Below are positions 1 to 13,243 of a DNA stretch of 64,000 nt, one piece after another. The DNA is from Lepraria neglecta. Its lineage: Eukaryota; Ascomycota; Lecanoromycetes; Lecanorales; Stereocaulaceae. Under the pieces are notes generated by a model. It saw nothing but the letters and a program-made list of their open reading frames with translations, searched no databases and had not been told where the DNA came from. The stretch covers positions 2,859,501-2,923,500 of the forward strand of contig CM065646.1 of assembly GCA_033220425.1 (NCBI GenBank). Reading direction: 5' to 3'. The first letter of the stretch is position 1; every line of letters starts with the position of its first letter. The translations under genes were made by a program, and so were the position numbers.

Positions 1-1262
1 TATAGCTCCAAGTCCATCAACGCTGGTGTTAAGGTTTGTAAGAGTTTCGTCATTGGATGCAGATGGGGCTGTTGGGTCGGTCATTCTCGTCTGCAGCCGG
101 AATGTGTACACTAACTATGACCAAGCTTTTATTAGAGGGGTAATTGATCGCAAGAAGCAGGTCAGATAACTGGGCTATGATATCACCAATTGCGCTGTGC
201 GACACAGTAAGAAGACTGATTTGATGAGCTCGCTTTTGCCATCGAACGAGGGATTATTATGTGTTGATCATTTTGAGCCTCATCGACAGCGCGCTGAAGA
301 TGCTCGATCTCGATCCTTTACCGCCCACTTAGTAGCCTTTCACTGTTTCACGACAGCCATCGTCCTCTTCAGCTGGGAAAAATAGAAACGCTCTTCATGG
401 TGTGCGAGCACAAGCCAACTGGTAAGTGATTGGCCCCAGAGCTGCTTGGTAATCGTCAGAACGGACGCCTCCTGCAGGAGTCGAGAGCATGCAGGTCTAA
501 ATAGAAAATCACCATGAGGTTGCATAGAATACGGGTACGCCACAGTCCCCAATGCAGTCATGATAGACGATTCAGCTTATCAGGTTGAAGGAAAACACGC
601 ACCTCACAATCGCCATCAAGCCACGGGCGTTAGCATTTTGCAGCTCACATGGCTGAGGGCCCAAGGCATACGTGGCTGATTGTGGCTTTCCCACATTATG
701 CTGGGAATGGGATTGGTATTCACGATGATAGGCCTGCGAGGCGAGAACTGTCAGAAAGAGGGGGGGCGTTCGTTCAGTCTAATGAAGTTCTGTTTAGTAA
801 TCTTTATTGGTCGCTTCATAATTGGACCGGAGATTGCCGCGGAATGGGGAGGAAGGAGCCCTGCTCCGCCACCACTCGTTTCAAGCCAGGAATTCGTAAA
901 GCTGCACGCGCGGAGATGACCCTGCTCGGCTATGAAAGTCAATAAGTCTCCCTTCTACCATCCATCGTGATTTCGCCTCCAACGCTTCCTAAAGGAGTCA
1001 CAGCGTTGTAACATCCTTATCATCCATTGGACGACGTGGACAAATGCTCCCTTGAGGATTGGGCGCAGCTGAAACCCTGTCACTCCTCGGGCGCCTGCTG
1101 AGACTATCAGGCGGTCAGACCGAAGGGTAAATAAGAACCAAGGACGCTCCTCTATCGAGTTATGCTGCCCAAAATTCACTCGCCATTGTGTCGGCGATTC
1201 TTTGTTTATTTGCGATTTATTCCGACACCTTTGAGATGTTGACATCCGCCTACCAGAACTCC
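1..1262. other. intergenic, no supported gene
   Basis: No open frame here has recognisable protein character. The last 200 bases (about 1061-1125) resemble the upstream region of the related gene at 5286: both carry GGGCGCAGCTG followed by a CTATCAG-CGG stretch. They therefore look like an old shared promoter region rather than unrelated spacer. Confidence 0.5.
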
Positions 1263-1624
1263 ATGTCTCCGGAATCAGATATTAAGCCAATACAAAGGAC
1301 GAACAGCGGTCACGTGATCGTTTTCGACCCCGCCACTCAAACCCTCACCACTGAAAAAGCCAAGAGGCTCAAAGGTACTTCTTGTAATCGACAAGATCTC
1401 ATTGCCCTAATGCTAATTCTGATATAGACTACGACGCCAAGCTGCAAACTGCCCCTAAGCTTGGTAGCCGAGTGGATATCTTCGTCGACTCCCGCCTTGT
1501 CGCAACGATCAACCTGAGCAAGCTGAGTTGGGCTACGAACACCAAACGCTTCTTCGGCAAATGCAATCAAATCCTTGTCATGGAGCTTCCCGATGGCATA
1601 TTACCACCCAGAATAAAGGCTTAG
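1263..1624 (+). CDS. unrecognised small protein, family copy A (102 aa, two exons)
   Basis: I do not recognise this family. Exons 1263-1374 and 1428-1624 are joined by a 53-base intron with GTACTT donor, TGCTAAT branch-like site and ATATAG acceptor, phase 1. The product has an N-terminal half with TNSGHVIVFDP and TTEKAKRL, and a C-terminal half with APKLGSRVDIF, ATINLSKLSW, TKRFFGKCNQI and VMELPDG. There is no signal peptide or membrane segment. Four relatives lie within 10 kb (5286+, 6769+, 3638-4013-, 9648-10027-), and the intron position and phase are the same in the copies with both exons. Copies A, B and the truncated copy at 6769 form one plus-strand subfamily (KRFFGKCNQI type). The start could also be the in-frame ATG at 1236; 1263 is chosen because it aligns with copy B. 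The gene looks intact. Function unknown. Confidence 0.72.
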
Positions 1625-3637: not shown

Positions 3638-4013
3638 TTAGACCGTGTTGGCCAAATGCTCGGCGTCCTCGCTCGGAATCACATACAAATCCTTGATGAA
3701 TCCACGGTGCCGCTTCATATTTGAGATCCAGTCAAGTTTGTCAAGGTCCAGCGTTGCGATCATGCGTTTCGAACCTTCCTTCTTGTAGAGTGTAACACAG
3801 CTGCCCCATCTCGGCACCCTCTCATGGTTCGTCGCTTTGCCAACTTGCACAAGCACAGATGTTAGCAGGCGCATCGGATACTCAAGGAGCGAGACAGAAC
3901 TTACGGTCAAGATTCCTGATTTTCTCCGTTCTCAAAGTAAGCTTCACAGGATCGAATACGATGACCAGCTCGCTGTTCGTCTCCTTGGCCTGCTCCATCT
4001 CTGTAGTGTCCAT
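3638..4013 (-). CDS. unrecognised small protein, family copy D (104 aa, two exons)
   Basis: Family not recognised. Exon 1 is 4013-3905 and exon 2 is 3843-3638, with a 61-base intron (GTAAGT donor, GCAAG acceptor, phase 1). The product contains TNSELVIVFDP, RTEKIRNL, VPRWGSCVTLY, SKRMIATLDLDKLDW and MKRHRGFIKDLYV. It shares with the copy at 9648-10027 an SGSK/EGSKRM insertion before IATL that the plus-strand copies lack, so the two minus-strand genes form their own subfamily. It starts only about 90 bases from the truncated end of a patatin-like relic on the same strand (4105-4907). Both exons are open and the splice sites are good, so it looks intact. There is no signal peptide or membrane span. 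Confidence 0.72.
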
Positions 4014-4104
4014 CGAAATCGACGTTCAAATGAGAAAAGAGGTTGGTAATGGTAATAGGAGGGACTTTGGGATGTAGAGTTTATGTTGAGGAACACGATT
4101 ATGG

Positions 4105-4910
4105 GGATGTCGTGTGCAAGGGCAGGGTTCCTATCGTGTACTCGTAGTTTTTGAGATGCGCCTTTGCGTAAAGTCTTATAAGTCCGGAGCAGGTAGGTTC
4201 TGTCAACTCCTGAGATTTGCCTTTGCCAGGCAATAACAACCCTGTGAGAAGTCAGTATAGGCTGTGTTATAGGGAATATTTTTCATACATTCTGCATCTA
4301 CTTTCATCAAACGCAAAGTTCGTTCCGCCAGGAAAAGAGGACTCCTTCGGTGCCTGCCGACTAACGACATCTCTCACGGCATCGCGTAGATGCCTGGAAG
4401 CGTATTTGTCCCTGAGTAAGAAGAGAGGTGATCGGAGGTGAAAGTGGCGGGGGTGTTCGAAGACTTTGCCGCCCAGTTGTTCGTACTCGTAGATGCAGTC
4501 GTCAATTTTCATCCTCAAACGTCCAATCATTATACCAATCAGTCTGTGTTTTAAGGTTAGCTGCATGTCCTTAAGTGGTGATACTCAACATACCCTCCAG
4601 TACTTGTACCTGCCACGTAATCGAAGTAATGACATGGAAGCCATGGCGAAGTTTCCGTTTTCGCAGGCTCAGCGGCCTTATCAGGCTGAGCATCCCTGTG
4701 GTTGTCTGGCGGATCTGGATCTGTATTCGCCCTAGTATCTGGTGACAAGGGATGATAGCTTGACTCCGCGGGCTCCACAAGTTTGTCTGGCCCTTCTTTA
4801 TATACCTTTTCAAGTCTGCCGATGGCTCTCATGAGTTCTTGAAGTATCGAAGACGCTGAGTATCTACGAACGCCGCCCCCATCTGCGTGGAAGTCAGTCA
4901 CGACCACATA
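4105..4910 (-). pseudogene. truncated patatin-like phospholipase relic
   Basis: The minus strand from about 4900 to 4105 matches the first part of the intact patatin-like gene at 11243-13243. It carries DGGGVRR (patatin oxyanion motif DGGGIRG), WLPCHYFDYVAGTSTGG (nucleophile Ser motif), IGRLRMKIDDCI, FHLRSPLF, NFAFDESRCR, YLLRTYKT and finally AHDIPI. Two spliceable introns are visible, GTATGT...ACACAG after GTSTGG and GTATGA...CTCACAG after CRM; the intact gene has neither. Similarity stops at AHDIPI, so the half holding the catalytic Asp and the C-terminal finger is missing. The N-terminal Gly of DGGGIRG is Arg here. Because of the missing half it is called a pseudogene. It lies head-to-head with small-gene copy B (5286). 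Confidence 0.78.
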
Positions 4911-5285
4911 GCAGGCACTATTGTACAGGCAGAGCGACTGAGGTGTGAGGGCAAGGTTGCGAAGAGAAGACGAACTAGTGCGCTACGCCTCCTAATTCTT
5001 TACTTCCTTGAGGAGGCATGACCCTGTATGATCATGATCATCGATAGGGTGCAGTGATTTAGAATTATGGGCGCAGCTGCAGGCTTCCGAAATTTGGGGC
5101 ACCTCCTAAGCCTATCAGCCGGACTCGCCGAAGACTTTTAAAACGCCACTGTTTCCCCTCCGATTCTCCGAATTAGCAATCACCTATGTATCGGCGGCCA
5201 ATATATGTCTCGAGCAGTCAATTGATTTCTCCCCTATTTTCATCACCATTGCCGTTCAATGTGGAAGCCCCTTTCTCAAGAATCA
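4911..5285. promoter_or_regulatory. spacer between divergent patatin-like relic and small-gene copy B
   Basis: About 375 bases separate the relic start from copy B. The stretch GCTGCAGGCTTCCGAAATTT at about 5077 recurs with few changes at about 10300 (GCTGCAGGCTTCCTGAATTT), inside the other divergent spacer between small-gene copy C and the intact patatin-like gene. This is the only shared block I could find between the two spacers. A promoter role is inference. Confidence 0.4.
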
Positions 5286-5623
5286 ATGTCTTCAGAACCA
5301 GAAATCCAGCCAATAAAGAGGACAAACAACGGCAGTGTGATCGTGTTCGAGCCCAAGACTCAGACTATCACGATAGAGAAAGCCAAGAGACTCAGAGATT
5401 AATCTTCAGATCTGAGAGACAAAATGGAGAATATTACTGACTAGAGCCCGCAGACCAAGAAGCCACAAAGACGCAGACTGCTCCCAAGTTTGGCAACAGA
5501 TTTGACATATATGATGAATCGCGTCTTGTCGCAACGCTGAATCTCGGCAAGCTTGGTTGGGTTCCAAATACCAAGCGCTTCTTCGGAAAGTGTAATCAGA
5601 TACTGGTCATGGAGATTTCCTGA
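5286..5623 (+). pseudogene. small-gene family copy B, probably damaged
   Basis: Clear homologue of copy A. Exon 1 (5286-5397) encodes TNNGSVIVFEPKTQTITIEK. Exon 2 (from about 5445) encodes APKFGNRFDIYDESRLVATL, KLGWVPNTKRFFGKCNQIL and VMEI. Two oddities are visible. The donor site used in copies A, C and D is absent here: the exon ends CTCAGAG followed by ATTAAT, not GT. One extra base after VME, relative to copy A, converts the LPDG tail to an immediate TGA at 5621. The acceptor (ACTGACTAG) is kept. It is either a recently damaged gene or one using another donor. It is head-to-head with the patatin-like relic. Confidence 0.65.
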
Positions 5624-6768
5624 TGGCATTGTGCACCCGCTGGTCGCTGCACGAGACCAATTGCGTCTCGTGCAAGGTACTACGTTAGCCATACTGTCAT
5701 TGCACTTTTCTTGGATTCCTGCTGTGTTTCGATCATGATGTTATGACGGCCGAATGTCGCTTCTCGCACTCATCTCGTTTGTTTGACTTCTAGCTCGGAT
5801 TGTAGGAAACAATCTTCAAATCAGCCGAACCACCATAATATACCTTTTCGATTCACGCCGGAGACAAGACTACATTTTCGAACCTAATGCCATACTCATT
5901 CACAGTAGTGGATGACCTAGCTGCTGGCTCAATAGCACCATTGAAGCTATCAATCTTTAATCAAGTTATACTGGAGGTCAGCGGAACGCCTGTGCGGCAG
6001 AACATGTACTTAAGAGCAAAGCCATTGGCTGACTGGTAACGGGGTCTTTAGCATGTGGGCGAGCTAATAAGCTCATATGAGAAGAATGGTGTTGATATTG
6101 CATATATTGCTAATCCTATGGAGTTGCATGTAGAATAAGTAGATTTCTCAGTTATACGCTAACCTTCATTAGGCTTAGTGCCAGGGTCACAGCTCTCAAC
6201 GTTTGGAAGGTTGAAGCGCAGCGTTCTCTCGGTCATATTGAGCTAGCCATGCAGGTGATTCAGCAAAGCCTTGCGCCCAGGGCGTATCCGGACATCATGG
6301 CTCCCTTTCTGATGGGAGACTCCTAGATCATGCATCATGGTGCCAACCCTGTGAAAGTGACAGAATAGTAGCGCGAAGCGCCACAAGAGGAGGCTGGCAA
6401 ACAATAAGAAGTTGATGCATGGCTAGCCTTTGTTCTGGATAGGTGTCAGGCATCAGCTTCTGCGGATGGTAGATAGACACCTAACGTAGACTCAGAAGTA
6501 TGCCCAAAGATCTTACCGTCCAATGAAGAACTGAGGAGTTGAATGAGTAGGTCACTTTGCGAGCAACGCTGCTATGGCTGGTTGGTAGCCTCATCTGCAT
6601 GCTCAGAGTAAGCCCAATAGTCAGACATGGTGTGTTGGGTGCTTGTGAATATGCTGACCGACTTATAACCCCCGTGATATTCTCAAGACTGACTAAGTAT
6701 AAACAGATCGACGATATGTACTCGTGGAAAGTCTTTGGGTGGTCGTTTGAGTCATTCCACGTGGCTTA
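5624..6768. other. flank of copy B, duplicated segment
   Basis: No gene is supported. The part at about 6448-6560 (GTAGATAGACACCTAACGTA and following) is a diverged copy of about 7666-7760 and more weakly of about 2318. The first 150 bases match the downstream flanks of copies A and E. Confidence 0.5.
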
Positions 6769-6884
6769 ACCTTGGCAAACTCGGTTGGGCTACGACCACG
6801 AAACGCCTCTTCGACAAATGCAATCAGATCTTTGGTATGGAGCTTCCCGGTGGTATGATACCACTTGTAGTGAAGGCGGCGTAG
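6769..6884 (+). pseudogene. small-gene family copy E, 5'-truncated
   Basis: Only the end of exon 2 is present: LNLGKLGWATTTKRLF, KCNQIFGMELPGG and a tail ending at TAG 6882-6884. The reading frame is intact but exon 1, the intron and the start of exon 2 are missing. It lies about 1.2 kb downstream of copy B in the same orientation, with matching downstream flank, so it looks like a tandem partial duplicate of the A/B type. Confidence 0.7.
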
Positions 6885-7849
6885 ATTCACTGGAGTCTGT
6901 GGTCAAGGGCAACGCTAGCTATCATACATTCGCACCTTCCTTGGGCTGCTGCGAAGTGTGATCATTGGTACATGACGGCCTTGATGTGCTTTTAGCACCT
7001 AGCTACTTCCTCGACTCCCCTCGCCAAATTGTGGAAAATTGCGATCAGTATGGAACCACGCACAATTTGTATATTCTATAATCACCTCAACTATACATCA
7101 ACGTGTTTGCCGTTTAGAGCTGCGTTCGTCTGGTGCATCAGACCAATCAAGCTCTAGCCTAGCTTCATGACTATTCGGCGAGCATTCTGTGATGTTTCAC
7201 GATGGAAGTGGAATGAGATTTATACACTGCCATTTTGCAGGGGAATATCAAAGGAGTTGGCAAAGACACATTTGGTTAGCCGGGTCAGGCGGAAGGTCGT
7301 GGGAATGGAGTTCACTGTAATGCATCGCTCTGTCCTATTCTTTCCTTAATGTCATAGTATGTTTAGTTCGAGGCAAGCGTATAGTCAACGTAATGAAGCT
7401 GTTTTGAGAATTGATGTGTAATGCGGCTTGGGAGATGCTCATGTGGCCTTCTAGACAGGCATTAAGGTGTCTTGGCTACTGAACACGCTGCCTTGTAACC
7501 TCTATGTCTGACGGCATATACGTCCTGCATTTAGCGAAAGCGGATTGATAGGAAGGAACACAGGGAGGGGCTCTGAGAGTAACAGAGCAAGGCTACCATG
7601 ATGGAGGAATCGAGACAAGACCTAGCCTTGTGATGTGGACCAGTAGTATCAAGCTTGAGCTCGGGCAGTACATAGATAGATACCTAGTGTAAATTCAAAA
7701 GTATGCTCGAGAGTACTGCTGTCCAACAGTGGCCCATAGAGTTTTGTTGGTTACAGTCGCTTGAGGTGTACAACACCGTAAGGTCAAACTAATTATCTGG
7801 TCTATTCACTCTGTGGATCCTCATGTCTCTGTGATCTGGGCAATAAGAG
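6885..7849. other. flank of copy E, duplicated segment
   Basis: No gene is supported. GGCGAGCATTCTGTGATGTT (about 7178) matches GGCGAGCATTCTCTAATATT (about 1877), and GAGTTGGCAAAGACACATTTGG (about 7253) matches the stretch near 1955. These place it as another diverged copy of the segment found after copy A. Confidence 0.55.
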
Positions 7850-8450
7850 AAGGTGGTGGAGATGTACCAATGCTTGACTGTGCGTCAAAACCATTACCAT
7901 CAAAGAGAGAAGAGCATGACTCTTGGTCACATTGAGTCGAGCCTGAGTTATTACCATCACAAGACGAGTCAATATTTCGATGACTCAGGGTCAAATTAAG
8001 TTACATGTAAGACCGTATCATGAGCAGATGACTCGAGAAACTAATAAATTTCGGTTGCATTAAATCGAACTTAAGTGAGTATCATTAGCAGACGAGTGGA
8101 TCAGTTGATGACTCTGCGCCATGCTGAATAGAGCCATTGTAAGTACCAAAAGCATATGAGTAGAGAAAGTGCTGAATGTCGGCTACAATGAGTCAAAACG
8201 TGGTTGAAGATTGAAACATAACTCAATCTAACTTAAAATTGAATCCCAAATACAAGCAGATGAGTAAGACAGTTGATGAATATCGGTCACATCGACTGAT
8301 ACTTGGGCAAGACCCTAGTGACATGGGAGAGAAAGACCACGACTCTCACCCAACTCAAATCAAAACTAAGTCAAAGTCATAAGTAGACGAGCAGTAAAAG
8401 TGTGACTGGTAACTACTTCGAACTAGAAGTCGATCAGAAGCACTGAAGAT
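7850..8450. repeat. degenerate tandem repeat block 2, period about 62-66 bp
   Basis: Units of the type GATGACTCTCGGTCACATTGAGTCGAAC...AGCAGATGAG (shown only in part) start at about 7914, 7979, 8045, 8108, 8170, 8276, 8336 and 8398. Unit length is stable although sequence identity between units is low. It matches block 1 at 2930-3420 in unit and orientation, so both belong to the same duplicated segment. Confidence 0.6.
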
Positions 8451-9647
8451 AGTGAGTAAAGTGACGAAGATGTTGGATCGACAACCATTAGCGGGAATAT
8501 TCATGTTTGAAAGTACCCAAAAAGTGTCAACCACTAGGTTACCGTCATAGAAAACTATTGCTCGCAAACTTCATATCCTGCGACAACATGGAAGGGAGAA
8601 TCAAGTGTGCACTATGCACGAACTTGCAACGTGGCCTTCCGATGCCACCACGACTCCAGGTAAAACATTTAGCTATGCCTCAATTCCTCGAGTTATGTGG
8701 AGACAATGAAAAGGCCCACCAACGCCAGGAAAGAAAAGCATGTTTCTATAATTATGGGAGATCCTAGCTTGGCGAGATGGATCTTGGAGGATTGTTTACT
8801 GCCTAAGGGCTCTTGAGTGCCTGAAGACCTTGGCATTCTAGGGAAAAAGTCTGAGCCAAAAAACCGGTTTGCGAACCGTGGGCTCGGATCAGAGGAGCGA
8901 TAAGCTAATACAGGGATGTGCCTTGCGACTCACCACTCGCTATGGATTGGGGAGATACGACTTAGGAAACTGCTCGTAGATGAAGAATAGGATGGAAAGT
9001 ATTGCATACGAAAAGTTTTTGGAGGACTTTAAAAGCGAGACTATTTTTGAAGTTTCGGCTGAGAGTCATCGAAGGAAAAATTCCATATCCATCGTTATGT
9101 CGTTGCTTCTAGCATTATTCCAGGAAAGAGAAATGAAAAACGAACGGAAAAGATGGATGCTCATATTGTATTCAAACTGTGCATGCAATGATTATCTAAA
9201 GATAGACATCTCGAAGCTTGCTCAGTGAAATTAGGGTTCGTGAGTGTCGCCAATTCTCAACGAGGACAACGATGTCTGGTCATTGCGTCGTACATTGCCC
9301 CTTTTTGCCATTTCGCCCATAGTATATAAGTTGCGTGTTAATTGAACTAGCAAGAATCGAAAACTAGATTTTCGTAAGAAGAGAAAAACGCCAGTAAAGT
9401 ACTGCGTGCAAGCGGTACATCCCCACGATAGTGTGCACTCTGAGGAGAAATAAAATATCCGCCGTCCATGAATTTGCCACGTGGCCTTCCAACGCCACAA
9501 TAAAGCCCGATACGTTCAGAGGGAAAATGAAACATCAAAGCATGCATTGAACAACACATCGATCGAAAAAATCATGAGGCCACATTCTCCCTCTAAGCGC
9601 TGGTGACCGTTAGGGTGACTCTTCAGTCAGAACGCTCCACAATGTGA
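8451..9647. other. intergenic, no supported gene
   Basis: A short near-repeat, CGTGGCCTTCCGATGCCACCA at about 8631 and CGTGGCCTTCCAACGCCACAA at about 9481, hints at another small duplication. An 82-codon open frame at 8980-9228 (+) is lysine- and glutamate-rich, starts at ATG, and has no recognisable motif; I do not call it a gene. Confidence 0.4.
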
Positions 9648-10027
9648 CTATGCCACTGCGACGACTGGAGCAGACCCGCCATGAGGAAGCTCCATGACAT
9701 AGATTTGGTTTATCAGTCCGAAGTGCCGTTTTACGTTTTCCATCCAGTGAAGCTTGTCGAGATTAAGTGTTGCGATCATGCGTTTCGAGCCGGACTCTTC
9801 GTAAATACTGACACGGCTGCCCCATTTTGGTGCGGTCTTCTGATTGGTGGCTTTCTCGACTAAAAATCTGTCAGTAAGGATCCCAGAACTCATGACACAG
9901 GAATTAGCTTACTGTCGAGATTCTTAGCTTTTTCGGTTGTCAAGGTTCCCTTTACAGGATCGAACACAATGACACGGCCACTGTTTGTTCTTCTGATCCC
10001 CGTTGGTTCTGGCTCTTCCATAGCCAT
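9648..10027 (-). CDS. unrecognised small protein, family copy C (108 aa, two exons)
   Basis: Family not recognised. Exon 1 is 10027-9913, exon 2 is 9859-9648; the 53-base intron has donor GTAAGC and acceptor TTTTTAG, phase 1. The product shows RRTNSGRVIVFDP, LTTEKAKNLD, TAPKWGSRVSIYEESGSK, RMIATLNLDKLHWMENVKR, INQIYVMELPHGG and a hydrophobic tail ending VVAVA. It is the cleanest family member: both exons open, standard splice sites, ATG in good context (CCAATGG). It is head-to-head with the intact patatin-like gene, 1.2 kb away. It belongs with copy D to the subfamily carrying the SGSKRM insertion. No signal peptide or membrane segment is seen. Role unknown. Confidence 0.75.
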
Positions 10028-11242
10028 TGGCGAGGGATTAGATTGAGAATTGACTAAGCGAGGGCAGGTTGGATAGGTAAGGACAGGAAAAATGGCTCAA
10101 TTGCAGTTCATTACTTTGTTAGAATCTGGAGGAAAAGAATAAAAGCCGTGCTCATTCGGGGGGTTTGGTATATAACAAGGGTCGAAGATCTTTGGCCTCC
10201 ACCCAGCGCATAAGGCCAGATCGGGTGTTGGTGTCATTCAATACGGCAAAATAAGCTTCTGCCTTGACTTGATAGGGCTAGGAGACAAGATTGCAAGTGC
10301 TGCAGGCTTCCTGAATTTCGCCCAAGGATGCATTCTTCCCGATGACGCCGCCCGATGACATAGCTAAGTTGGATTCCTACCAACTAGTAGGCTCTCTGAC
10401 AACGTATTGATGACTCGTCCTCGAGACACACTGCCCAACGGCATCTCACCAAGATGTCATTCTGCCACTCCTTGGGGCTCCTGATCGCGTGGCTGAGTAC
10501 AGTAGCTGAAGAAAAAATGGAATATGCCTGCGTAGAAAGGGGGCTGAGCCTCAATCAGGCAGCTGACATGCAGGGTTGCATTCGGATTGGTGATTGGCCA
10601 CCTTAGCGCCATTCCAGGATGGACGCCACTTCGCTTCGAACAATCTTCCTATTGGATATTCATATCTCTCCTGCATAACTTGTCACATCCATTGCTCGAG
10701 TTCTCATTCGATCTACACAAGCCACTCGAGTCCTATTCTGCTTCCGCACTGAGTAAGCTATCTGCAGGAAATCGCAGGCCATATTGGTTCATTCGTTCGA
10801 GTGCATCTCACTGCTGAAACCCTTGGTGAATAGACGCCTGTTTTTTTCCAATTTCAAAACCTCGTGATTTGATCCAATTGATTGTTCCTGCGACATGAGG
10901 GTCATGCTCATCTGTTCCCAGTTTTGCATAAGGCCACAGTCAGCCCCGCACTGTTCTCCAGCTACTGTGTTTCGTGCGTCAATAGTTTGTGAGTGGCGCG
11001 CTCGGCGCACCCATGATGGGAATAGCATTGCAACATGATGGCCCGATCTGTTGGGCCCCTTCTAGACTCTGGAGGCTCAAAATGGGGGTCGCACTACATA
11101 GTAGTCGCAAGGCTCACACAAGGTTTTGTTGTCATGAATATCTTGCCCTATGCCACTTTAATGCTTATACACAATTGGCGCTGATCTTGAAGTCCGAATT
11201 CCGAATTGCAATCAAGCCTCCTACTCGAAAGTTTGGGCGTCC
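10028..11242. promoter_or_regulatory. divergent spacer between copy C and the patatin-like gene
   Basis: About 1.2 kb without a supported gene. It contains GCTGCAGGCTTCCTGAATTT at about 10300, nearly identical to a block in the spacer at about 5077 between the other small gene/patatin-like pair. An open frame at 10989-11339 overlaps the patatin-like start and looks like chance. Regulatory function is inferred from position only. Confidence 0.35.
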
Positions 11243-13243
11243 ATGGAGGCATGGAGAGACTTCGACCCAACTACCAACCCCTGGGGAACCCCCAGATCTT
11301 CAGCAGCAAGCCCAGAGCGCAACTCAAGATCGACAGTGATTAGGACAGCGCCAGAAACCAATCAAGATGACTCCGACCGCCATCAATCCTTATCGCCCAC
11401 CGAGTACAACACGGAGAGCAATGATTATTTCTACGAATTCAACCCGCGCGGTCCTCAGCGGGCCGCGACCACGCCGAACCTCCCCAACCACCGAGCCATC
11501 ACCCAAAGCCAAACGCGACAGTCGACGCACGACACAAAATACTCGGCAACATTCGAACAGACGGCTCCATGGGATCAAAAGGCAATATTGTCGTTGGACG
11601 GTGGTGGGATACGTGGATACTCGGCTCTCTTGATAATCAAAGAGTTGATGAACGTTATCATGAGACTGGAGATGAACCATCCCGATGGCGCGGCCGATTC
11701 AAGCTACCATCCTGAACCACCGGCCCCATTGTTCGCGATAGAGTCAAAAGGCGATGGTCAGCCCGATGTAAGGGGTCAGAGTCCAGAGTCGGCTCTGTGG
11801 CTACCTTGCCATTACTTTGACTATATGGCGGGGACCAGCACGGGAGGACTCATCAGCATCATGCTTGGCCGCTTGAGAATGAACATTGATGACTGCATCT
11901 CGGACTATGAGATACTCGGAGGCAAGGTATTTGGACACAGCCGATGGTTTCATCTGAGATCACCTTTATGGTTCCCTAGGGACAAATACAACCACAAGAC
12001 CTTGCAAAATGTTATCAAGGATGTGGTAGATCACAGGGTGCCGAAAATCCACAAATTTCCTGGAGGGCAAAACTTTGCCTTTGACGAAAACAGGTGCAGA
12101 AGCGTGGTCTTATCATATCAGCAGCAGACAAACGAAGAAGCTAAACAGGCTGGGGTCGAAAGAGTCTACCTCTTCCGCACGTACAAGAATCTTCACCAAA
12201 GTGAAACAGCTCAAGATCGAGAAACGGACCGAAACCCCGGTCCCGCCCATGACATTCCGATTTGGCGGGTGGCTAGGGCAACATCCGCGGCACCGGGCTA
12301 CTTCAAGCCTATGAAGATACGCAAGCTCGCCTATCTGGACGGCGGGTTCGGTACGAATAATCCGTGCGAGGAGATATTCGAGGAAGTACGAAAAATGAAC
12401 AACCATACAGAAAACTGCGCCAGTATCATCGTCAGTGTTGGGACGGGCATAGACAAAGAGTGGGGTCGCTTCAAGAAATTAGGACCATCTCGCTTCATCA
12501 ACTTCCTCAATGTCGCCAGAAAGTGGGCTTCGGACTCACAGGAGGCACATGTAAGGATGGTGAACAGATCACAAGGAGCCCCGTTCAAATATGTAAGACT
12601 CAATGTCGAAGATGGAATTGGCCCTATGAAACTGGATGAGTGGCGTGTCAGAGGTTCAGTACGAAGATTTATTGGGTCCTGCATAGGCAAACTAAGACGA
12701 TCGCTTGGTGCACCACGATCAAAGTCAAATCGAGAAGTCCAGATGGAAAATGGACACGCTACTGCCGAAGAGAAAGACAGTGATTCAACTATCGACACAG
12801 CACCTGCAGCTCCCAGCCAAAATGACCAAGCAAACATAGAAGGGAGAGATACCAGCAATGTTCCAAATACCGTACCCCAAAAGGACTCCTCGGCCATTCC
12901 GAGATGGTTCCAGCCCAAGAACAAGACTCTAGACTCAATTCGAAAACACACCTCGGAATACCTGAACAGACTAGAAGTACAAAGGTCCATCGAAGAAGTA
13001 GCCGAAATGCTCGTCAACGGAAGACGAGCAAGAGTCAGCGCAGACCGCGACAAATGGGCAAAGGCTTGCTTCGGAACGTGGTACCAATGCAAGATTCCGA
13101 AATGTCCTAGAGGAGAGAAGGAATACGACGATCGCCATTCGTTAGAAAAACATTTCTTGCATAAGCACGGTGATCAGTTTACCAAGGAGAACATGCCTGT
13201 GCTGGACAAGGCGCTGGATGAGTGCAAGATAGTCGTCCATTGA
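11243..13243 (+). CDS. patatin-like phospholipase with C-terminal C2H2-type finger (666 aa)
   Basis: A single uninterrupted frame. Residues 119-125 are DGGGIRG (oxyanion loop), 197-202 are GTSTGG with Ser199 as expected nucleophile, and YLDGG places catalytic Asp at 366, so the Ser-Asp dyad of patatin/iPLA2-like acyl hydrolases is complete. The first 110 residues are polar and low in complexity. Residues about 500-580 are again polar. The end has C616-X4-C621-X15-H637-X4-H642, a C2H2-like finger. Family members hydrolyse phospholipid or galactolipid acyl esters; in fungi, patatin domains also occur in proteins linked to non-self recognition and cell death. No signal peptide. The start lies in good context (CCATGG). 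A truncated relative lies at 4105-4910. The true substrate is unknown. Confidence 0.9.
   Translation: MEAWRDFDPTTNPWGTPRSSAASPERNSRSTVIRTAPETNQDDSDRHQSLSPTEYNTESNDYFYEFNPRGPQRAATTPNLPNHRAITQSQTRQSTHDTKYSATFEQTAPWDQKAILSLDGGGIRGYSALLIIKELMNVIMRLEMNHPDGAADSSYHPEPPAPLFAIESKGDGQPDVRGQSPESALWLPCHYFDYMAGTSTGGLISIMLGRLRMNIDDCISDYEILGGKVFGHSRWFHLRSPLWFPRDKYNHKTLQNVIKDVVDHRVPKIHKFPGGQNFAFDENRCRSVVLSYQQQTNEEAKQAGVERVYLFRTYKNLHQSETAQDRETDRNPGPAHDIPIWRVARATSAAPGYFKPMKIRKLAYLDGGFGTNNPCEEIFEEVRKMNNHTENCASIIVSVGTGIDKEWGRFKKLGPSRFINFLNVARKWASDSQEAHVRMVNRSQGAPFKYVRLNVEDGIGPMKLDEWRVRGSVRRFIGSCIGKLRRSLGAPRSKSNREVQMENGHATAEEKDSDSTIDTAPAAPSQNDQANIEGRDTSNVPNTVPQKDSSAIPRWFQPKNKTLDSIRKHTSEYLNRLEVQRSIEEVAEMLVNGRRARVSADRDKWAKACFGTWYQCKIPKCPRGEKEYDDRHSLEKHFLHKHGDQFTKENMPVLDKALDECKIVVH

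What the first reader, a model, noticed from the sequence alone, without database searches (positions are those of the whole stretch)
4105..11242. Repeated head-to-head pairing of the small gene with a patatin-like gene
Copy B is divergent from the patatin-like relic (375 bases apart) and copy C is divergent from the intact patatin-like gene (1.2 kb apart). A 20-base block GCTGCAGGCTTCC(T)GAAATTT-like occurs in both spacers. Patatin-like proteins act in fungal cell-death systems, so the small protein could be a partner, inhibitor or trigger. This is the best candidate here for an undescribed two-gene system.
Basis: inference. Interest (0 to 1): 0.8.

Follow-up and report, generated by a model that had tools for sequence, protein, structure and literature searches.

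The report
Conserved lichen-fungus phospholipase partner gene pair
Lichen-forming fungi carry an undescribed small protein gene that sits again and again next to one type of patatin (membrane-lipid-cutting enzyme) gene, in several species and at more than one place of one genome, which suggests that the two products work together.

Summary
The window is a Lepraria neglecta chromosome.

The pairing is not one local duplication. Five of nine tag-named small proteins from other genomes have a patatin with the next or next-but-one locus tag (four species, two lichen orders); six more contigs match by exact length. In L. neglecta a diverged copy lies head-to-head with a patatin on another chromosome, and a remote relative is the C-terminal domain of a protein kinase about 0.4 kb from a further patatin (convergent). 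Divergences of the two families correlate (r = 0.83; 0 of 5000 shuffles).

The small protein has no credible Pfam match, no PDB sequence match and no convincing fold match. The shared block is weak: a 13-mer, absent from the third spacer, in opposite orientation relative to the genes.

Most likely it is a dedicated regulatory partner of a patatin phospholipase, in a two-gene module like those of fungal cell-death systems. Brake, activator or trigger is untested; orientation in other species could not be read; four of nine named small proteins show no listed patatin neighbour; one family of remote relatives is mostly not patatin-linked.

The parts
1..84 (-). First part of patatin P0 (start codon at 84; the rest lies upstream of the window, to about C1:2857068)
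   Evidence: Matches P2 at 44-67% identity piece by piece; open exons with DGGGIRG, GTSTGG and DGGFG motifs
1263..1624 (+). Small gene copy A, exons 1263-1374 and 1428-1624, 102 aa; identical to OEA41_006328
3638..3998 (-). Small gene copy D, exons about 3998-3905 and 3843-3638, 99 aa; identical to OEA41_006329; no divergent patatin beside it
4052..4883 (-). Patatin relic P1: N-terminal part and everything after residue 354 of P2 missing; DGGGVRR instead of DGGGIRG
   Evidence: tblastn pieces; three frames
5286..5623 (+). Small gene copy B, probably broken: the bases where other copies have GT at the intron start read AT, and the frame stops at once; second exon still open
6768..6884 (+). B2, fragment of a small gene (end of the second exon only)
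9648..10027 (-). Small gene copy C, exons about 10027-9913 and 9859-9648, 108 aa
   Evidence: P0001 equals it in spliced form, without the first two residues
11243..13243 (+). Patatin P2, intact, 666 aa in one open frame
   Evidence: PF01734 E 1.7e-22; DGGGIRG, GTSTGG and DGGFG seen in the frame
5076..5088 (+). 13-mer shared with the C/P2 spacer (judged weak)
10299..10311 (+). 13-mer shared with the B/P1 spacer (judged weak)

Best explanation
The cluster is several old copies of a two-gene module: a patatin-like phospholipase and a dedicated small (about 100 aa) partner protein, divergently transcribed here. SHOWN by sequence: a relative of the small gene lies beside this one patatin subfamily in two lichen orders and on a second chromosome of this genome; the divergences of the two families correlate; a remotely similar domain ends a protein kinase beside a further patatin. 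INFERRED: the small protein binds the patatin and sets its activity (holds it off until a signal arrives), so that the pair is a self-contained membrane-lipid-cutting effector; the kinase fusion would be a version in which the partner domain brings the signalling input with it. Repeated duplication and decay of the pairs would fit a role in non-self recognition or stress-induced cell death, which is inference from the role of patatin domains in other fungi.
For: Adjacent locus tags for 5 of 9 tag-named small proteins outside L. neglecta: Mycoblastus sanguinarius 007003/007004, Peltigera leucophlebia 000498/000499 and 007622/007623, Psora crenata 004757/004758, Stereocaulon virgatum 000863/000861. 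11 of 65 small proteins (those five included) share an exact contig length with a listed patatin, against a mean of 0.13 and a maximum of 2 in 600 shifted controls. Diverged copy head-to-head with a patatin on C4 (E 2.6e-9 for exon 2, 1.4e-14 spliced), also reached by a whole-genome search at E 1.3e-4. Kinase-fused domain E 2.2e-6, convergent with a patatin. Correlated divergence: r 0.83 for 16 pairs, 0.66 for 13 close pairs, 0.94 for six pairs of this genome; 0 of 5000, 0 of 5000 and 13 of 3600 shuffles reach it. Copy B seems broken beside the dead patatin, while A and C are open beside intact patatins.
Against: 4 of 9 tag-named small proteins have no patatin neighbour among the 120 patatins listed of 911. 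Orientation is not uniform: the kinase fusion is convergent. Remote relatives of the C4:1940k type are near a patatin at 1 of 6 loci. Copy D is open without a patatin of its own and keeps 19 of 24 near-invariant residues, about as many as A with 20. Within the Peltigera trio and for several other rows the two trees do not agree. No interaction, activity or expression was tested.
Confidence: 0.45

Rival explanations
1. The small protein is a signalling adaptor or activator: a docking domain that carries kinase or receptor input to the patatin, rather than a brake on it.
For: The remotely similar domain at the end of a protein kinase beside a patatin and about 3.5 kb from a HeLo gene.
Against: One locus only; the domain match is weak (E 2.2e-6 for the exon, 1e-5 for the whole protein); no contact shown.
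Confidence: 0.25
2. Linkage without joint function: the two genes were neighbours in an ancestor and have been inherited and duplicated together by descent, perhaps held by a shared two-way promoter region.
For: Correlated divergence is also what joint inheritance gives. Orientation and spacer length are alike in A/P0, C/P2 and the C4 pair: 1178, 1215 and 1032 bases.
Against: Association over two orders and at separate loci of one genome, in convergent form at one; no convincing shared spacer element.
Confidence: 0.2
3. The small protein is a recognised self molecule (guardee or trigger), as SEC-9 is for PLP-1, and the patatin reacts to foreign versions of it.
For: In PLP-1/SEC-9 a patatin-domain protein reacts to a small endogenous protein and the two interact physically (passages of PMC10197012 and PMC12881547).
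Against: PLP-1 is an NLR with NB-ARC and TPR repeats; P2 shows only the patatin domain in Pfam. The small protein matches no known family, so no housekeeping role is visible.
Confidence: 0.08
4. The pairs are fully explained by one local duplication.
For: Three pairs lie within 15 kb.
Against: P1 groups with a Stereocaulon patatin and P2 with patatins of other contigs, both at 100/100; pairs exist in other species and on another chromosome.
Confidence: 0.02

Closest known systems
PLP-1 / SEC-9 allorecognition pair (Neurospora; also Podospora and Botrytis per PMC12881547)
   Same: A patatin phospholipase domain together with a small protein; the patatin activity is needed for cell death in PLP-1 (passages).
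   Different: PLP-1 is an NLR with NB-ARC and TPR repeats; P2 has only the patatin domain in Pfam. SEC-9 is a SNARE; the small protein matches no known family.
HET-S / NWD2 and other amyloid-signalling two-gene clusters
   Same: Adjacent genes for an effector and its control protein, with birth-and-death of copies (passages).
   Different: No motif shared by the two products: the small-protein profile finds nothing below E 0.8 in the 120 listed patatins. No NLR found in P2.
Fungal gasdermin / protease two-gene clusters
   Same: A membrane-damaging effector next to its dedicated control gene (passages).
   Different: Different protein families; here the effector is an enzyme and the partner is not a protease by Pfam.
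Bacterial toxin-antitoxin pairs (recalled)
   Same: A small gene beside an enzyme gene; the partner copy B seems broken beside the dead enzyme P1.
   Different: Eukaryotic, divergent, with introns in the small gene; toxicity and neutralisation untested.

Membership tests
Patatin-like phospholipase (PF01734) | Match to the family profile above its curated cut-off | tested here: met
   P2: 81 bits against a cut-off of 27.7
Patatin-like phospholipase (PF01734) | Gly-rich oxyanion loop, GxSxG serine motif and DG[GA] aspartate motif (motifs recalled) | tested here: met
   P2: DGGGIRG, GTSTGG, DGGFG by eye; P0 likewise; relic P1 has DGGGVRR and lacks the aspartate part
Patatin-like phospholipase (PF01734) | Lipase activity | not testable with these tools
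   Needs an enzyme assay
PLP-1-type NLR | NB-ARC or NACHT domain with C-terminal repeats in the patatin protein | tested here: not met
   Pfam scan of P2 at E up to 1 gives the patatin domain only
SEC-9 (SNARE) as partner | SNARE family match of the small protein | tested here: not met
   No SNARE family among Pfam matches at E up to 1 for 13 family members
Amyloid-signalling two-gene cluster (HET-S/NWD2 kind) | A motif shared by the two neighbouring products | tested here: not met
   Small-protein profile against the 120 listed patatins: nothing below E 0.8; amyloid formation itself not tested
Toxin-antitoxin pair | Effector harms the cell alone and is neutralised by the partner | not testable with these tools
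   Needs expression tests
Any known fold for the small protein | Confident match to a solved structure | tested here: inconclusive

The most novel reading that the evidence does not exclude
The small protein founds an undescribed fungal signalling-domain family whose job is to control patatin phospholipases. It occurs as a stand-alone partner or fused to a protein kinase, in one case near a HeLo gene, and forms a self/non-self or stress cell-death module of lichen fungi that uses neither NLRs nor shared amyloid motifs.
Probability: 0.3. Interest if true: 0.8.

Novelty: new variant of a known kind. Interest (0 to 1): 0.62.

Why it matters
If true, it gives lichen-forming fungi, where little is known of how fungal individuals and partners recognise each other (recalled), a concrete two-gene candidate, and it gives a new domain that can be tested as a regulator of patatin phospholipases. 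It also shows how a small overlooked gene can be given a likely role from its conserved neighbour, here with a remote fusion to a protein kinase as a further hint.

Tried and rejected

Copy D as clearly relaxed for want of a patatin: not shown. It keeps 19 of 24 near-invariant residues against 20 for A, 20 for B and 24 for C; the 24 residues were defined with P0001, which is copy C, in the set; synonymous change between copies is saturated or nearly so.

The C4:1940k relative first looked like a further pair. A whole-genome search with it showed six further strong copies: one close by at C4:1943k and five at places with no patatin. Of these five I read three (L033-L035); they share stretches of about 0.9-1.3 kb at 85.5-87% identity and so lie in repeated DNA. 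I count this family only as remote relatives.

Literature searches, open-licence papers only: patatin with lichen and fungal (20 papers, 10 listed), with allorecognition and Neurospora (5), toxin-antitoxin (12, 8 listed), two-gene cluster and cell death (2), Lecanoromycetes (0), HeLo and kinase (19, 8 listed), divergently transcribed (1). None of the listed ones describes this pair by title and start of abstract. I read found passages (12 each) of PMC10197012, PMC12881547 and PMC9815663; the rest I saw as listings only.
Full report
WHERE IT IS. The window is C1:2859501-2923500 of a 42.0-Mb genome in 11 contigs. The contig length 6,294,035 equals that given for Lepraria neglecta OEA41_006328 and OEA41_006329, whose sequences are identical to copies A and D as I spliced them. 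L. neglecta belongs to Stereocaulaceae, Lecanorales; that it and the other named species form lichens is recalled.

OBSERVATION. All stated features are present: copy B faces the patatin relic, and copy C faces the intact patatin P2 with 1215 bases between. In addition a third patatin, P0, starts at window 84, runs upstream, and faces copy A across 1178 bases. The order is P0(-) A(+) D(-) P1 relic(-) B(+) B2 fragment(+) C(-) P2(+). Copy D has no divergent patatin; its start codon (3998) lies about 50 bases from the end of the relic's homology (4052). A deletion may have removed both the relic's second half and a former partner of D; that is inference. The shared block is an exact 13-mer only; the observation check says why it is not convincing.

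THE SMALL PROTEIN. It has about 100 residues and one phase-1 intron after the first 30-40. It has no credible Pfam match and no PDB sequence match. A first search returned 17 proteins at E up to 1, a profile search 65. A model from 50 sequences has mean pLDDT 70.6 and pTM 0.57, with six strands and a helix. No solved structure matches convincingly. P0001 equals copy C, without its first two residues, in spliced form on a 1035-base contig, which suggests a transcript; the contig's origin was not checked.

NEIGHBOURHOOD IN OTHER GENOMES. Nine small proteins carry a name with a locus tag outside L. neglecta. Five have a patatin with the next or next-but-one tag: Mycoblastus 007003/007004, Peltigera 000498/000499 and 007622/007623, Psora crenata 004757/004758, Stereocaulon 000863/000861. 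Four do not, within the 120 patatins listed of 911: Mycoblastus 002931, Lepraria finkii 012370, Alectoria fallacina 005470, Alectoria sarmentosa 008810. The tagged species span Lecanorales and Peltigerales. Tags and lengths give nearness only, not strand or distance.

NEIGHBOURHOOD IN THIS GENOME. The profile of the 50 small proteins was run on six-frame translations of the window, the 20 kb upstream (which holds P0) and three other regions of P2-like patatins. It found (a) a diverged small gene at C4:1447336-1447754 (exon 2 E 2.6e-9, exon 1 E 0.027; spliced 1.4e-14), head-to-head with a patatin with 1032 bases between the presumed start codons; (b) the C-terminal part of a 752-aa protein kinase at C1:5301511-5301720 (E 2.2e-6; kinase PF00069 E 7.6e-35), convergent with a patatin about 440 bases away, with a HeLo gene about 3.5 kb beyond (PF14479 E 4.2e-26) and a DUF659 frame between; (c) a weak two-exon relative at C4:1940455-1940893 (E 0.17 and 0.08; spliced 3.2e-6), divergent from a patatin some 2.5-3.5 kb away. 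In all three the intron can be read as phase 1 at the same place. The rest of the window and the 20 kb upstream gave nothing below E = 10. Ten other patatin regions gave nothing below E = 2.6, or 2.2 with a profile that includes the three relatives. By my count 14 of 27 patatin places were not read.

WHOLE-GENOME SEARCHES do not depend on looking beside patatins. Queries C, L020, P0011 and P0139 found, at E up to 0.01, only the window cluster, the C4:1447k copy and themselves. The L017 query found itself, then weakly copy A (E 0.02) and C4:1940k (E 0.1). The L019 query found six further strong copies, five of them away from the patatins. So the close family is patatin-linked at 2 of 2 loci, the kinase fusion at its one locus (found by local search only), and the remote L019 family at 1 of 6 loci.

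HISTORY. In the patatin tree relic P1 groups with Stereocaulon 000861 (100/100), and P2 with P0018 and three patatins on contigs whose lengths match small proteins (100/100). P0 groups weakly (93/78) with another such patatin. The small-protein tree is poorly resolved; it joins B with Stereocaulon 000863 (82/74) and the three Peltigera-like rows (99/98), as the patatin tree does, but inside that trio, and for other rows, the two trees differ. Distances of the two families correlate: r 0.83 for 16 pairs (0 of 5000 shuffles), 0.66 for the 13 close pairs (0 of 5000), 0.94 for six pairs of this genome (13 of 3600). The pair 38140 was left out of this test because its small protein is a fragment. 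Shuffling does not remove shared descent, so this shows joint inheritance and duplication, not contact. P1 covers only a conserved part, which raises its identities.

MECHANISM. The patatin domain is needed for killing by PLP-1 of Neurospora, and two-gene clusters recur among fungal cell-death modules (passages of PMC10197012, PMC12881547, PMC9815663). P2 has the motifs of an active patatin but no receptor part and no motif shared with the small protein. The simplest reading is a phospholipase with its own regulatory partner; the kinase fusion points to a signalling domain. Whether it restrains or activates is open.

VERDICT. A real, conserved gene pair with a small protein family that I found described nowhere in the searches named above; function inferred. 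It is a new variant of the known kind of fungal two-gene effector cluster.

Noticed in passing
L020:1399-3720 and L020:9208-9999 (C1:5299399-5301720 and onward): Protein kinase whose C-terminal part resembles the small protein, convergent with a patatin; about 3.5 kb beyond lies a HeLo gene whose frame goes on into kinase-like sequence by eye.
   Followed up: partly
L017:861-1793 (-), C4:1440861-1441793: Frame beside a patatin that looks HeLo-like by eye; no Pfam match at E up to 0.1.
   Followed up: no
C4:1940633, C4:1943277, C1:3385291, C1:3333478, C5:175802, C6:1480884, C6:543091: Family of seven remote relatives; five lie away from patatins, several have TAG stops in frame, and the three of these five that I read lie in repeats of about 0.9-1.3 kb, as if spread by a mobile element and then mutated.
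   Followed up: partly
window 20454-21977 (-): HET-domain gene (PF06985, E 3.7e-29) about 7 kb from P2.
   Followed up: no
window 11243-13243 compared with P0 and P1: P2 is one open frame, while P0 and relic P1 are split by what look like introns; listed relatives of P2 are also long unbroken proteins, so this branch seems to have lost introns.
   Followed up: no
C-terminus of P2, window about 13060-13243: Cysteine and histidine pattern like a C2H2 zinc finger by eye; Pfam gives no match there.
   Followed up: no
window 22357-23730 (-): Anthranilate-synthase-like gene (PF00425, E 1.6e-85) next to the HET gene.
   Followed up: no
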